64,000 nt of DNA, from the NCBI RefSeq assembly GCF_004210375.1, contig NC_134825.1, positions 620,001 to 684,000 on the forward strand. The letters are read 5' to 3'. Of the stretch, positions 11,007 to 60,312 are shown in pieces. The notes under the pieces are model-generated. The model did not search any database, was not told the origin of the DNA, and was given only the letters and a program-made list of their open reading frames with translations. Positions within the stretch are counted from its first letter, which is position 1. Every line of letters starts with the position of its first letter. The stretch is from Tachypleus tridentatus. Lineage: Eukaryota; Arthropoda; Merostomata; Xiphosura; Limulidae. The translations under genes and the position numbers were made by a program.

Positions 11007-11506
11007 NNNNNNNNNNNNNNNNNNNNNNNNNNNNNNNNNNNNNNNNNNNNNNNNNNNNNNNNNNNNNNNNNNNNNNNNNNNNNNNNNNNNNNNNNNNNNN
11101 NNNNNNNNNNNNNNNNNNNNNNNNNNNNNNNNNNNNNNNNNNNNNNNNNNNNNNNNNNNNNNNNNNNNNNNNNNNNNNNNNNNNNNNNNNNNNNNNNNNN
11201 NNNNNNNNNNNNNNNNNNNNNNNNNNNNNNNNNNNNNNNNNNNNNNNNNNNNNNNNNNNNNNNNNNNNNNNNNNNNNNNNNNNNNNNNNNNNNNNNNNNN
11301 NNNNNNNNNNNNNNNNNNNNNNNNNNNNNNNNNNNNNNNNNNNNNNNNNNNNNNNNNNNNNNNNNNNNNNNNNNNNNNNNNNNNNNNNNNNNNNNNNNNN
11401 NNNNNNNNNNNNNNNNNNNNNNNNNNNNNNNNNNNNNNNNNNNNNNNNNNNNNNNNNNNNNNNNNNNNNNNNNNNNNNNNNNNNNNNNNNNNNNNNNNNN
11501 NNNNNN
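11007..11506. other. Assembly gap (500 N)
   Basis: Exactly 500 unknown bases, the usual placeholder for a gap of unsized length. The satellite array begins at the first base after it, so the array's left end and true length are unknown. Confidence 0.99.
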
Positions 11507-54263: not shown

Positions 54264-54515
54264 TTAAAAATTGACTGATTTTACGACCAAGATTTCATAA
54301 TCCTGATAAGCATGTTCTTGACCTCCGTATGCGATGTAAAGAACACCGTGGCTGGGATGAACTTTACCAATCGTTATAGCTCCCTCGTGCCATGTACGCC
54401 CTATGTATAATATCTCTCCATCAGCGGTGATTCCCCCTTGAACAGCTCCCGTGGGGATCTCACTCCCAGAAGAGCGAATCCAATCCAATCTGGTTCCGTG
54501 TAGATTAACTAGAAC
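54264..54515 (-). CDS. DM9 gene exon 3 (second DM9 repeat)
   Basis: The acceptor CTCATGTGCAG precedes 54515. The exon continues in phase 0 as VLVNLHGTRLDWIRSSG, then the second DM9 repeat, ending YQDYEILVVKSVNF and TAA-type stop at 54264-54266. This is the terminal coding exon. Confidence 0.92.
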   Translation of the reverse strand, partial: VLVNLHGTRLDWIRSSGSEIPTGAVQGGITADGEILYIGRTWHEGAITIGKVHPSHGVLYIAYGGQEHAYQDYEILVVKSVNF

Positions 54516-57500
54516 CTGCACATGAGAGTAAAAATCTCAGTTTATTCTTAGTTAAGTAGCTTTATTAACTCTTAACGTAACTTACAAGGACAACAGAGCG
54601 TTTCACAATAGTTATGTAACGTTGTTAAGGAAAGTGTATCTTAATTTAACACGTGTTCAGTAGTCTATAAGTAATGTAACACACTTAACACAGACTATTC
54701 ATTGCAAGTAGAAGTTAACTGACAAAACGTAAGTCCTTGTAGCTGCCTCAAGAGACTTCCTGGACTAGATGTCTAGTGACTCAGCCATCAAACTGGTTAA
54801 AGGTATGAATAAAAACTTTTGAGTTAAAAATACAAGGAAAGGTTTTATCACAATTTATTATTGATTCGGAAGATTCATATTCGTAGCTGTGGATTAGGTG
54901 TTTGCCTCAAGTTAACTTGGTTTTTCTTTCAGTGTCTTTGTTGTTGTTATTTTCAGGTTGCTGTGATGGGAGAGCTTGTTCGCCTCAGAACATTGAGCAC
55001 TCTAATCTTTTGCTGGTAACAACATTGGTGTTGTTGGATATCTGTCTTTGGGACAAACTATCTCTTCTAATACAAATCTTCCCTTCAGTGAAATGTATTG
55101 GTGATCAAAATGACAGCACAGTTGATCTGCACAACGACTGCACGATTTAATATTAATACGATAGGAATGTCAGTAATGTCAGTATTTGGAATTAATATTC
55201 TCAGTATGTCGTGATATAAGATACAGACTAGTGTATTCCACTAGTTTACAAACACTCTGGGAAACCGAAACGTTACAAAAACTTATTTCACAAGAATTTC
55301 TCTGTAGTAAAAAAGGCGTTTTGTATCTGGCTAACATAGTTCAGATGCAAAGTGTGTCAAGTAGCTTTGATTTATCTACTTAACTGTCAAAAATAAAATA
55401 GGTGATAAGATAATATGGATAGGAAGACTAACAGATAAGTATGAAAAACCTGTGGTTCTCAGAAAAGCTTATGAAAATAAATATTCACAAAAACTGGGTG
55501 TACATGAAAATGATAGGCGGAAGACATTCGAGAAGTGTTAGTATATAATTGATTTGAATAATTAGATTGTTTAGTCACCAATATATTCAAACCAGTGTTT
55601 CTCTAAAAGGCAGTAGCCGCCCATTCCGCAGTCAGTTGAAGGTGTAACCATGTTAGGTTAGATTAAAACAACCATCATAAAAAGAAACTAATAGATAGTT
55701 TATCCTGCCTTGTATAGTAGTTAATACAGAGTTTGTTCTGTTTACTAGATAAGTCAGTACATTGTTCATTCTGTTTACTAAATAATTTAATACACAGTTG
55801 TCGTGGTTAATACAGAGTTTATTCTGTTTACAAGACAAGTCAGTACATAGTTCATTCCGTTTACTAAATAATTTAATACACAGTTGTCGTGGTTAATACA
55901 GAGTTTATTCTGTTTACAAGACAAGTCAGTACATAGTTTATCCTGCTTAGTAGAGTAGTTAATACAAGACTCCTCTTGGTATTCAGTCTCACTATGTTTT
56001 TAAATTACTTGGTATAAGGTATGACTATGTTTATAAATTAACTGGTATTCAGTATGACTATGTATATATGTTACCTCGTGTTCGATATGACTATGTTTAT
56101 AAGTTACTTGGTATTTGTTATGGCCATGTTTATAAGTTACTTGGTATTTGTTATGGCCATGTTTATAAGTTACTTGGTATTTGATATGACTATGTTTATA
56201 AGTTACTCGGTATTTGTTATGGCCATGTTTATAAGTTACTTGGTATTTGTTATGGCCATGTTTATAAGTTACTTGGTATTTGATATGACTATGTTTATAA
56301 GTTACTTGGTATTCAGTATATTATGTTTATAAGTTACTTGGTATTCAGTATATTATGTTTATAAGTTACTTGGTGTCCAATAAGACTCTGTTTATATATT
56401 ACCTGGTATATGTTATGACTATGTTTATAAATTACTTGGTATTCATTATGACTATGTTTATAAATTACTTGGTATTCATTATGACTATGTTTATAAGTTG
56501 CCTAGTATATGCTATTACTATGTTTATAGATTACCTTGTATTTGGTGTGACTGTGTTTATAAATTTTCTGGTATTCAGTATTACTATATTTATAAATTAC
56601 CTGATATTCAGTATTACTATATTTATAAATTACCTGATATTCAGTATGGCTATGTTTATAAGTTACCTGGTGATCAGTATGACTATGTTTATAAATTACC
56701 TGGTGATCAGTATGAATATGTTTATAAATTACCTGGTGATCAGTATGACTATGTTTATAAATTATGTGGTGATCAGTATGAATATGTTTATAAATTACCT
56801 GATATTCAGTATGGCTATGTTTATAAATTACCTGGTGATCAGTATGACTATGTTTATAAATTACCTGGTGATCAGTATGAATATGTTTATAAATTACCTG
56901 GTGATCAGTATGAATATGTTTATAAATTACCTGGTGATCAGTATGACTATGTTTATAAATTACCTGGTGATCAGTATGACTATGTTTATAAATTACCTGA
57001 TATTCAGTATGGCTATGTTTATAAATTACCTGGTGATCAGTATGATTATGTTTATAAGTTACCTGGTGATCAGTATGACTATGTTTATAAGTTACCTGGT
57101 GATCAGTATGACTATGTTTATAAGTTACCTGATAATCTGTATGACTGTGTTCTTCCCCTCCCCATGGTACATAGACGCATCCATGAGAAGGATGAAGTTT
57201 GCCCGGAACAACATCACCCTCATGGTTTGCCCTTCCAACATAAATTGGTTCACCCGAATCCTCTCCACCTTGCACTGCTCCATATGGCACATGTCCTGCT
57301 TGACCATCCATCCATTCAGCGACAGTCTTATAATGAAGAGCTGTAGAAACACAAACACGTTATCCTGTAGTCCATGTTAGGAATATCTAGTCACTGAGAT
57401 CTGTAAAATTTCAGCTTTACCAAGTAGTCATTATTTGCTTACATTTCTGATATATAATTAACATTTCTGTGGTATCTAGTGATGAGCATCAAAGTTCTTG

Positions 57501-57588
57501 TATTATACAGTATGTTTTGAATTACAGCTAAAAGTTAAATTTCAAAATAATCAGGTAGAATGAAATACTTACCCCCACATTGAGCCAT
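54264..57588 (-). CDS. Two-repeat DM9 domain protein (three exons, complete)
   Basis: Exon 1 (57588-57573) encodes MAQCG plus one base, exon 2 (57340-57129) the first DM9 repeat, and exon 3 (54515-54264) the second repeat and stop. Phases are 1 and 0 with donors GGGG|GTAAGT and CAG|GTAACT and acceptors TCTACAG and TGTGCAG. The product is 159 residues. The repeats align: EWMDGQAGHVPYGAVQGGED...YVGRANHEG...GKLHPSHG...GGEEHSH with DWIRSSGSEIPTGAVQGG...YIGRTWHEG...GKVHPSHG...GGQEHAY. Two tandem DM9 repeats, about 140-160 residues and no signal peptide are typical of cytosolic DM9 proteins; oyster members bind mannose and act as pattern receptors. The carbohydrate-binding role is inferred from family. 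Intron 2 (2613 bp) contains the 33-bp minisatellite. Confidence 0.92.
54516..55716 (-). other. DM9 intron 2, unique portion
   Basis: AT-rich intron without recognised elements. Plus-strand ORFs at 54902-55150 and 55186-55383 lack ATG context or domain similarity and lie antisense within the intron. They are not called as genes. Confidence 0.5.
55717..55965. repeat. 86-bp tandem repeat, 2-3 copies
   Basis: Copies of about 86 bp contain TTCATTCTGTTTACTAAATA, TACACAGTTGTCGTGG and GAGTTTATTCTGTTTACAAG. The two central copies are near-identical. An internal half-repeat (TTCTGTTTAC every about 43 bp) is visible. Confidence 0.85.
56003..57128. repeat. 33-bp minisatellite seeded by the DM9 exon 2 donor
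   Basis: About 34 units of 27-33 bp. On the gene strand the unit is CATAGTCATACTGATCACCA-G|GTAATTTATAAA, i.e. 18-21 bp copied from the end of exon 2 (CACAGTCATACAGATTATCAG) plus 12-15 bp of the intron start. Units nearest the exon (56600-57128) are 33 bp and well conserved; those beyond 56400 are diverged (CAA|GTAAC). About 16 units keep CAG|GTAA. The frame contiguous with exon 2 is open down to 56502. Confidence 0.95.
57129..57340 (-). CDS. DM9 gene exon 2 (first DM9 repeat)
   Basis: The acceptor GTGTTTCTACAG precedes 57340. There are 70 full codons from LHYKTVAEWMDG to EEHSHTDYQ, ending in phase 0 at CAG|GTAACT. The frame remains open into the intron for about 209 more codons because the adjacent minisatellite is an 11-codon duplication of this exon end. 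Confidence 0.9.
57573..57588 (-). CDS. DM9 gene exon 1 (coding part)
   Basis: ATG GCT CAA TGT GGG G then consensus donor GTAAGT. The single carried base joins CT of exon 2 to make alanine (MAQCGA-LHYKTVAEW). The start is chosen because it is the only ATG that brings the phase-1 donor into the DM9 frame. Short MA-starting leaders are usual for the family. Confidence 0.85.
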
Positions 57589-57899: not shown

Positions 57900-60312
57900 T
57901 GCAAGTAATTACAAAGTTTTGATATACAGTAATATGAACGTGTGTAAAACAACGTGTAAAGTTGTGTAAAAATGGACAAGTAATTACAAAGTTTTAATAT
58001 ACAGTAATATGAACGTGTGTAAAACAACGTGTAAAGTTGTGTAAAAATGGACAAGTAATTACAAAGTTTTGATATAGAGTAATATGAATGCGCGTAAAAC
58101 AACCTGTAACGTTGTGTAAAAATGGACAAGTAATTAGAAAGTTTTAATGTAGAGTAACATGAACGTGTGTAAAACAACCTGTAAAGTTGTGTAAAAATGG
58201 ACAAGTAATTAGAAAGTTTTAATATAGAGTAACATGAACGTGTGTAAAACAACCTGTAAAGTTGTGTAAAAATGGACAAGTAATTACAAAGTTTTAATAT
58301 AGAGTAACATGAACGTGTGTAAAACAACCTGTAAAGTTGTGTAAAAATGGACAAGTAATTACAAAGTTTTAATATAGAGTAACATGAACATGTGTAAAAC
58401 AACCTGTTAAGTTGTGTAAAAATGGACAGGTAATTACAAAGTTTTAATATACAGTAATATGAACGTGCGTAAAACAACCTGTAAAGTTGTGTAAAAATGG
58501 ACAGGTAATTACAAAGTTTTAATATAGAGTAATATGAACGTCTGTAAAACAACCTGTAAAGTTGTGTAAAAATGGACAGGTAATTACAAAGTTTTAATAT
58601 ACAGTAATATGAACGTGTGTAAAACAACCTGTTAAGTTGTGTAAAAATGGACAAGTAATTACAAAGTTTTGATATAGAGTAACATGAACGTGTGTAAAAC
58701 AACCTGTAAAGTTGTGTAAAAATGGACAATTACAAAGTTTTAATATAGAGTAATATGAACGTGTGTAAAACAACCTTTAAAGTTGTGTAAAAATGGACAA
58801 GTAATTAGAAAGTTTTAATGTAGAGTAACATGAACGTGTGTAAAACAACCTGTAAAGTTGTGTAAAAATGGACAAGTAATTAGAAAGTTTTAATATAGAG
58901 TAACATGAACGTGTGTAAAACAACCTGTAAAGTTGTGTAAAAATGGACAAGTAATTACAAAGTTTTAATATAGAGTAACATGAACGTGTGTAAAACAACC
59001 TGTAAAGTTGTGTAAAAATGGACAAGTAATTACAAAGTTTTAATATAGAGTAACATGAACATGTGTAAAACAACCTGTTAAGTTGTGTAAAAATGGACAG
59101 GTAATTACAAAGTTTTAATATACAGTAATATGAACGTGCGTAAAACAACCTGTAAAGTTGTGTAAAAATGGACAGGTAATTACAAAGTTTTAATATAGAG
59201 TAATATGAACGTCTGTAAAACAACCTGTAAAGTTGTGTAAAAATGGACAGGTAATTACAAAGTTTTAATATACAGTAATATGAACGTGTGTAAAACAACC
59301 TGTTAAGTTGTGTAAAAATGGACAAGTAATTACAAAGTTTTGATATAGAGTAACATGAACGTGTGTAAAACAACCTGTAAAGTTGTGTAAAAATGGACAA
59401 TTACAAAGTTTTAATATAGAGTAATATGAACGTGTGTAAAACAACCTTTAAAGTTGTGTAAAAATGGACAAGTAATTACAAAGTTTTAATATAGAGTAAC
59501 ATGAACGTGTGTAAAACAACCTGTAAAGCTGTGTAAAAATGGACAGGTAATTACAAAGTTTTAATATACAGAAATATGAACGTGCGTAAAACAACCTGTA
59601 AAGTTGTGTAAAAATGGACAGGTAATTACAAAGTTTTAATATAGAGTAACATGAACGTGTGTAAAACAACCTGTAAAGTTGTGTAAAAATGGACAAGTAA
59701 TTACAAAGTTTTAATATAGAGTAACATGAACGTGTGTAAAACAACCTGTAAAGTTGTGTAAAAATGGACAAGTAATTAGAAAGTTTTAATATAGAGTAAC
59801 ATGAACGTGTGTAAAAGAACCTGTAAAGTTGTGTAAAAATGGACAAGTAATTACAAAGTTTTAATATAGAGTAATATGAACGTGTGTAAAACAACGTCTA
59901 AAGTTGTGTAAAAATGGACAAGTAATTACAAAGTTTTGATATAGAGTAATATGAATGTGCGTAAAACAACCTGTAAAGTTGTGTAAAAATGGACAACTAA
60001 TTACAAAGTTTTAATATAGAGTAACATGAACGTGCATAAAACAACCTTTAAAGTTGTGTAAAAATGGACAAGTAATTACAAAGTTTTAATATAGAGTAAT
60101 ATGAACGTGTGTAAAACAACCTGTTAAGTTGTGTAAAAAATGGACAAGGTAATTACAAAGTTTTGATATACAGTAATATGAACGTGTGTAAAACAACCTG
60201 TGAAGTTGTGTAAAAATGGACAAGTAATTATAAAGTTTTGATATACAGTAATATGAACGTGTGTAAAACAACCTGTAAAGTTGTGTAAAAATGGACAAGT
60301 AATTAGAAAGTA
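57900..60312. repeat. 75-bp minisatellite, about 32 copies
   Basis: The unit contains GTAATTACAAAGTTTTAATA, TAGAGTAACATGAACGTGTG and AACCTGTAAAGTTGTGTAAA. As 75 is 25 codons, the minus strand reads an open SIFTQLYRLFYTRSYYSILK-type repeat for up to 281 codons. This looks like a by-product of unit length. The array lies directly upstream of the DM9 gene. Confidence 0.97.
58125..59466. repeat. 671-bp higher-order duplication (two apparently identical copies)
   Basis: 58125-58795 and 58796-59466 share the same order of unit variants (TTAGAAAG/TTTTAATGTAG, ACATGTG, GTGCGT, GTCTGT, and a unit shortened at GGACAATTACAAAG). I saw no difference between them, so this is a very recent duplication or an assembly duplicate. 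Confidence 0.85.

What the first reader, a model, noticed from the sequence alone, without database searches (positions are those of the whole stretch)
56502..57340. In-frame minisatellite built from a 5' splice site, able to lengthen the linker between two DM9 repeats
Seen: the 33-bp repeat in DM9 intron 2 is a tandem copy of the exon 2 end plus donor. The unit is exactly 11 codons, has no stop, and the intron phase is 0 at every copy. About 15 units within the open frame retain CAG|GTAA. Inference: choosing the nth donor would add n x 11 residues (VIYKHSHTDHQ-like, His-rich) between the two carbohydrate-binding-type repeats and rejoin exon 3 in frame. Array length polymorphism plus splice choice could then produce a ladder of protein isoforms from one defence-type gene. 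I know of no described system of this kind.
Basis: partly seen in the sequence, partly recalled or inferred. Interest (0 to 1): 0.88.

Follow-up and report, generated by a model that had tools for sequence, protein, structure and literature searches.

The report
Splice-donor minisatellite in a lectin gene
In a horseshoe crab sugar-binding (lectin) gene, the end of one exon and its splice signal have multiplied into a row of near-identical copies that could let the cell make the protein with zero, one or more extra 11-residue steps; a human interferon-induced gene is already known to do this, so it is a striking new example, not a new kind of thing.

Summary
The window lies in a horseshoe crab genome. 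On the minus strand, a two-repeat DM9 (natterin-type lectin) gene has a 33-bp array starting at the exon 2 donor. Each unit copies the last ~23 nt of exon 2 plus the donor, spans 11 codons and keeps phase 0. From exon 2 the frame runs through 18 units and stops in the 19th (TAG 56504-56502), with 16 CAG|GTAA donors and one AAG|GTAA. The 16 tie as the best U1-pairing sites in exon 2 plus intron 2. A collinear second copy 112 kb away, probably the other allele, has 23 units and 22 donors in the same stretch, so array length varies. Three other DM9 loci share the intron without the array.

The array shows no coding constraint: 12 of 14 distinct variants are nonsynonymous, and an open frame is expected by chance. 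It looks like a mutation-driven minisatellite in a region that is 66-75% tandem repeat. Use of several donors is plausible but unshown; no transcripts were available. 'No described system of this kind' is wrong: human IFI6 (6-16) has a minisatellite supplying alternative donors. Verdict: real, convergent new member of a known kind.

The parts
57573..57588 (-). Exon 1 coding part (ATG GCT CAA TGT GGG G), donor GGG|GTAAGT
   Evidence: Sequence; U1 pairing -12.2 kcal/mol
57129..57340 (-). Exon 2, 212 nt, first DM9 repeat, ends ...GGEEHSHTDYQ
   Evidence: Pfam DM9
55977..57151 (-). 33-bp minisatellite as TRF calls it, 35.7 copies; its outer end overlaps the end of exon 2
56505..57128 (-). Open-frame part of the array: 18 full 11-codon units (VIYKHSHTDHQ-like) and most of the 19th; 17 candidate donors counting the exon's own
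56502..56504 (-). First in-frame stop (TAG), in the 19th unit; shared with the second copy of the locus
55977..56501 (-). Distal units: four more in frame, then units one base short that shift the frame, stops in every step, most donors weakened to CAA|GTAA (one CAG|GTAA left, 56402)
54264..54515 (-). Exon 3, second DM9 repeat, acceptor CAG|GTTCTAG, phase 0, ends at TAA

Best explanation
The last ~23 nt of exon 2 plus the first bases of intron 2 of a horseshoe crab DM9 (natterin-type) lectin gene became the unit of a 33-bp minisatellite (shown by the sequence match). It grew by slippage or unequal exchange next to the donor and decays at its far end (inferred). Nearly every unit in the open stretch recreates an equivalent donor in phase 0 (shown), so splicing of exon 2 to exon 3 can start from several points, most likely from the first few (inferred). 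Each step adds 11 residues inside the strand joining the two DM9 repeats, and because the unit is a copy of that strand the sequence on both sides of the joint is kept. The system works like the donor minisatellite of human IFI6. It is most likely a tolerated by-product of minisatellite growth; a selected isoform ladder is not supported.
For: Unit copies exon end, 19/23 vs background best 17. The other three DM9 loci (C10, C3, C7) have the same phase-0 intron after YQ and no array at the donor, so the intron is older and the array derived; a query of three units found 33 places, all in the two C1 copies. Of 154 GT sites in exon 2 plus intron 2, the 17 best (-8.0/-8.1 kcal/mol) are all array boundaries, 16 of them in the open frame and one (56402) beyond the stop. 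The second copy has 21 CAG|GTAA donors in an unbroken row and 23 units to the same stop unit. The two copies share both ends of the open part and differ inside (unit maps). IFI6 precedent.
Against: No transcript or peptide data. All donors of the array lack G at +5 and pair less well than the exon 1 donor (-8 vs -12.2); position alone could fix the choice on the first donor. No spliced retrocopy. U1 pairing is only one part of donor choice.
Confidence: 0.6

Rival explanations
1. A purely intronic, neutral minisatellite: the exon-side donor is used always, the other units are never exons, and the open frame is accidental.
For: The region is 66% and the window 75% tandem repeat, 95 arrays in 233.5 kb, so an array at an exon edge is not surprising. 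12 nonsynonymous and 2 synonymous distinct variants, with 76%, 20% and 4% (stop) expected for random changes. The chance of no stop among 14 random changes is about 0.58 (0.962^14, worked out by hand).
Against: The other donors have the same core motif and U1 pairing as the first, and the first three donors have the same -3..+8 bases; exclusive use of one would need a positional rule. In IFI6 downstream units are used.
Confidence: 0.3
2. Constitutive exon extension: the last good donor is used and the array is mostly coding.
For: Frame open over 18 units in one copy and 22 in the other.
Against: No coding constraint; would add 176-198 residues in one copy and 220-242 in the other within a two-repeat lectin fold; the three other DM9 loci have no insert.
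Confidence: 0.04
3. Recursive splicing: each CAG|GTAA boundary acts as a zero-length exon, so that intron 2 is removed in steps.
For: Boundaries read AG|GT, as ratchet points do (recalled).
Against: No long pyrimidine tract before the unit AGs (sequence); intron 2 is only 2.6 kb; 33 nt is too short for an ordinary intron (recalled).
Confidence: 0.02
4. The array acts as a regulatory decoy: many U1 sites slow or weaken exon 2-3 joining or give read-through transcripts that end at TAG 56504 with a one-repeat lectin plus a His-rich tail.
For: 17 tied U1 sites within about 730 bases; read-through gives 278 codons from exon 2 to the stop.
Against: Nothing beyond sequence; poly(A) signals and expression were not looked at.
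Confidence: 0.04

Closest known systems
Human IFI6 (G1P3, 6-16) donor minisatellite (Turri, Cuin and Porter 1995; title seen in a reference list, paper not held)
   Same: [quoted passage not shown] That it starts at the end of exon 2 and adds whole codons is recalled.
   Different: Unrelated gene, lineage and unit: 33 bp/11 codons here, 12 bp/4 codons there (recalled). Use of downstream units is published for IFI6, unshown here.
Oyster CGL1 / DM9CP lectins (PDB 5id8 and relatives, deposited as Natterin-3)
   Same: Two DM9 repeats, match over residues 13-152 of 159 (E 4.6e-18); CGL1 site-A residues Asp22, Lys43, Glu59 have D, K, E in the aligned places (read by eye).
   Different: His52 is Tyr here; CGL1 has nothing like the array at the joint (only 3 extra residues just after it in the alignment).
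Coding minisatellites / VNTRs (e.g. mucin type; recalled)
   Same: Unit length divisible by 3; length varies between copies.
   Different: Here the array lies across a splice donor and would be coding only by splice choice; no coding constraint.

Membership tests
IFI6-type donor minisatellite (by mechanism, not descent) | Array begins at the end of an exon and its unit contains the donor | tested here: met
IFI6-type donor minisatellite (by mechanism, not descent) | Unit is a whole number of codons, so that each donor keeps the frame | tested here: met
   33 bp, phase 0, 18 full open units and 22 in the second copy
IFI6-type donor minisatellite (by mechanism, not descent) | Downstream units are used as donors in mRNA | not testable with these tools
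   No transcripts held; search for a spliced genomic copy gave 27 hits, all with 2 mismatches (reversed-pattern control 17), none taken as a copy
IFI6 gene family | Homologous protein | tested here: not met
   The only Pfam family of the protein at E 0.001 is DM9
DM9 / natterin-type lectin | Two DM9 repeats over the curated cut-off | tested here: met
   PF11901, 197.2 bits vs 26.2, two stretches
DM9 / natterin-type lectin | Mannose-site residues | tested here: inconclusive
   D, K, E present, His52 replaced by Tyr, by eye from the alignment with CGL1 (residue list from PMC4932603 passages)
DM9 / natterin-type lectin | Binds sugar | not testable with these tools
   -

The most novel reading that the evidence does not exclude
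A length-polymorphic splice-donor array gives each animal and each allele its own ladder of lectin isoforms, with steps of 11 residues between the two sugar-binding repeats (17 candidate donors in one copy, 22 in the other), changing the relative placing of the domains that share the sugar sites and so the range of recognised microbes.
Probability: 0.07. Interest if true: 0.78.

Novelty: new member of a known kind. Interest (0 to 1): 0.42.

Why it matters
It would be another, independent case of a minisatellite that multiplies a working donor in a defence-type gene, with more tied donors than the two downstream units reported used in IFI6. With up to 21 donors of the same core motif in a row at a fixed 33-nt pitch, it is a natural experiment on how the spliceosome chooses among equal donors by position alone, and two copies of different length are at hand in one assembly. 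For the lectin itself it would show how slippage at a splice site can change a protein without breaking its frame.

Tried and rejected
Looked for a spliced retrocopy that would show the used donor: a pattern of the array or exon end joined to exon 3, with up to 2 mismatches (the short form would differ by 1), gave 27 hits, all with 2 mismatches; control (pattern reversed) 17; none taken as a retrocopy.

Asked whether arrays here carry donors in general: 5 of 95 non-overlapping arrays have a unit donor of -8 kcal/mol or better on either strand, shuffled units 5.0 on average (1-9), so there is no general link. The five are three different arrays, two of them present twice, this array being one.

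A wider baseline of arrays at exon ends in other genes was started and dropped: the PF00083 search gave 9 loci that I did not analyse for arrays; PF00069 and PF00059 searches did not complete; the HSP70 search could not cut out loci. So how often this happens in this genome is unknown.

Structure prediction of the read-through protein was not possible (tool switched off). The first U1 energy script gave zeros through a fault of mine; its unit maps and donor strings are used, its energies are not; repeated correctly. Mollusc haemocyanin domain PF14830 found nothing, and no control rang; arthropod cuticle PF00379 did not complete; coagulogen PF02035 then pointed to a horseshoe crab.

Papers: searches. 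Seen: passages of PMC4526556, PMC2572611 (reference list only) and PMC4932603; all others only as search listings. Turri 1995 and Parker and Porter 2004 are not held.

Full report
WHERE IT IS. The window is G000:C1:620001-684000 of a 2.17-Gb genome in 205 contigs. The genome holds coagulogen (PF02035): 19 matches, among them four on C11 (9.017-9.022 Mb) that cover the family in order like the exons of one gene, and weaker ones on C7 and C11. That family is known to me only from horseshoe crabs (recalled), so I take the animal to be a horseshoe crab; the species is not established.

THE GENE. On the minus strand: exon 1 coding part 57588-57573, exon 2 57340-57129 (212 nt), exon 3 from 54515 to the TAA at 54266-54264. 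The exon model is read from sequence and homology, not from cDNA. The spliced product has 159 residues and matches Pfam DM9 with 197.2 bits (cut-off 26.2) in two stretches. Its solved relatives are four distinct sequences deposited as Natterin-3, best 5id8 (E 4.6e-18, residues 13-152); I take these to be the oyster lectin CGL1, whose residue numbering they fit.

THE ARRAY. TRF gives period 33, 35.7 copies, 55977-57151. Starting exactly at the exon 2 donor, 18 units of exactly 33 bp (57128-56535) read in frame as VIYKHSHTDHQ and variants; the 19th unit ends in TAG (56504-56502); four more in-frame units follow, then units one base short and stops in every step. Unit starts: 16 of 20 checked are CAG|GTAA, one AAG|GTAA, three are broken. 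The last 23 nt of exon 2 match the unit consensus at 19 positions; 2366 background windows of the gene, each tested in all 33 rotations, reach 17 at most. So the unit is a copy of the exon end plus donor.

A SECOND COPY. C1:784500-793500 (L009) holds the same gene. Exon 2 differs at 1 of 212 bases (same protein) and exon 3 at 1 of 252 (Arg to His). Its array has 23 units to the same stop unit (19 in the window) with 22 GT donors, 21 of them CAG|GTAA in an unbroken row; down to the last recognisable unit, 43 steps of 33 against 35 (TRF 43.7 and 35.7 copies). Unit maps share the exon-side end (AA) and the far end (H, J, K, L, M) and differ in between. The window's copy lies in a contig (631507-718705) bounded on both sides by runs of exactly 500 N. 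After masking tandem repeats, 26 of 40 matches of 150 bases or more to the next contig are collinear on the same strand at an offset of 111-115 kb with 95.9-100% identity, up to the very end of the contig; the other 14 lie off that diagonal or inverted, mostly from a dispersed repeat (my count). The first 27 kb of the contig are one tandem array and could not be tested this way. The simplest reading is that the contig is the other allele left in the assembly; a recent large duplication is not excluded. Either way the array differs by whole units.

POLARITY. The other DM9 loci (C10, C3, and C7, which again appears twice) have the same phase-0 intron after ...YQ, with donors CAG|GTAAAG, CAG|GTACAC, CAG|GTAAGC, and no array at the donor in the stretches fetched; the C7 introns do hold arrays further in. 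The DM9 search scored 15 candidates and lists 12 matches, a lower bound by its own words. A query of three consensus units finds 33 places in the whole genome, all in the two C1 copies (that search skips very common words). The intron is thus older than the array.

DONOR STRENGTH. I computed pairing of the U1 snRNA 5' end with positions -3 to +8 of all 154 GT sites in exon 2 plus intron 2. The 17 best (-8.0 or -8.1 kcal/mol) are all array boundaries: 16 in the open frame and one beyond the stop (56402); the next is -7.7, inside exon 2. The AAG|GTAA donor scores -6.6. A perfect site scores -14.0, the exon 1 donor -12.2, the same intron in C10, C3 and C7 -8.3, -7.1 and -11.0. The donors are therefore ordinary-to-weak and tied with one another: pairing with U1 gives no reason to prefer the first.

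IS IT CODING? In the first 17 units of the window and the first 21 of the second copy there are 14 distinct variants from the consensus, 12 nonsynonymous and 2 synonymous, each base change judged alone; random changes with transitions weighted 2 would give 76% nonsynonymous, 20% synonymous and 4% stop. I left out the last two units of each open stretch, which are decayed and hold the stop. There is no sign of constraint, and 14 random changes would miss a stop with probability about 0.58. A period divisible by 3 is found in 30 of 95 arrays of this region. So the open frame needs no selection: it is inherited from the exon and kept by youth (inference). Small numbers: a weak constraint could be missed.

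WHAT AN INSERT WOULD DO. By the alignment, the splice junction falls between CGL1 residues Glu66 and Val67 (numbering), 7 residues after Glu59, which binds mannose at site A; both sugar sites lie on boundaries between the two domains (PMC4932603 passages). Each unit repeats the stretch HSHTDHQ but has Lys where Glu59 would be, so it does not copy the sugar contact. A step of 11 residues would lengthen the joint between the domains while keeping the local sequence on both sides. Whether it folds is unknown.

MECHANISM, step by step. Shown: exon-derived unit, tied donors, phase 0, open frame, unit-number difference between two copies, absence of the array at the donor in three other DM9 loci. 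Inferred: growth by slippage or unequal exchange; use of more than one donor, most likely the first few, by analogy with IFI6. Not supported: selection for an isoform ladder.

PRECEDENT. [quoted passage not shown] That paper is not held; the 12-bp unit and 26 copies are recalled. The searches listed no other such case that I recognised from titles and abstract beginnings; the 24 papers listed were not read beyond this, apart from passages of PMC4526556 and PMC2572611.

VERDICT. A real and tidy donor-derived minisatellite, convergent with IFI6; splice ladder plausible, unshown; interest moderate.

Noticed in passing
window 11645-38717: A 27-kb array of a 50-bp unit, about 546 copies (TRF), next to a 500-N gap at window 11007-11506; it fills the start of the contig that carries the gene.
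   Followed up: no
window 1-64000: 75% of the window and 66% of the surrounding 233.5 kb is covered by TRF tandem arrays, 95 non-overlapping ones, counting both copies of the duplicated stretch.
   Followed up: partly
G000:C1:631507-718705 vs 719206-833500: The contig of the window looks like an unpurged allele of the next contig. The C7 DM9 locus also occurs twice, 266 kb apart, perhaps for the same reason.
   Followed up: partly
window 57902-60311: A 75-bp array of about 32 copies lies some 300 bases upstream of the ATG of the lectin gene, perhaps in its promoter region; also present in the second copy.
   Followed up: no
G000:C1:667457-668686, 682709-684172, 699388-700845: A dispersed repeat of about 1.3-1.5 kb in both orientations, roughly 82-95% alike between places.
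   Followed up: no
G000:C8:132812854-133793067: A cluster of very similar HSP70 matches at a spacing of about 8.8 kb, in two blocks 0.9 Mb apart.
   Followed up: no
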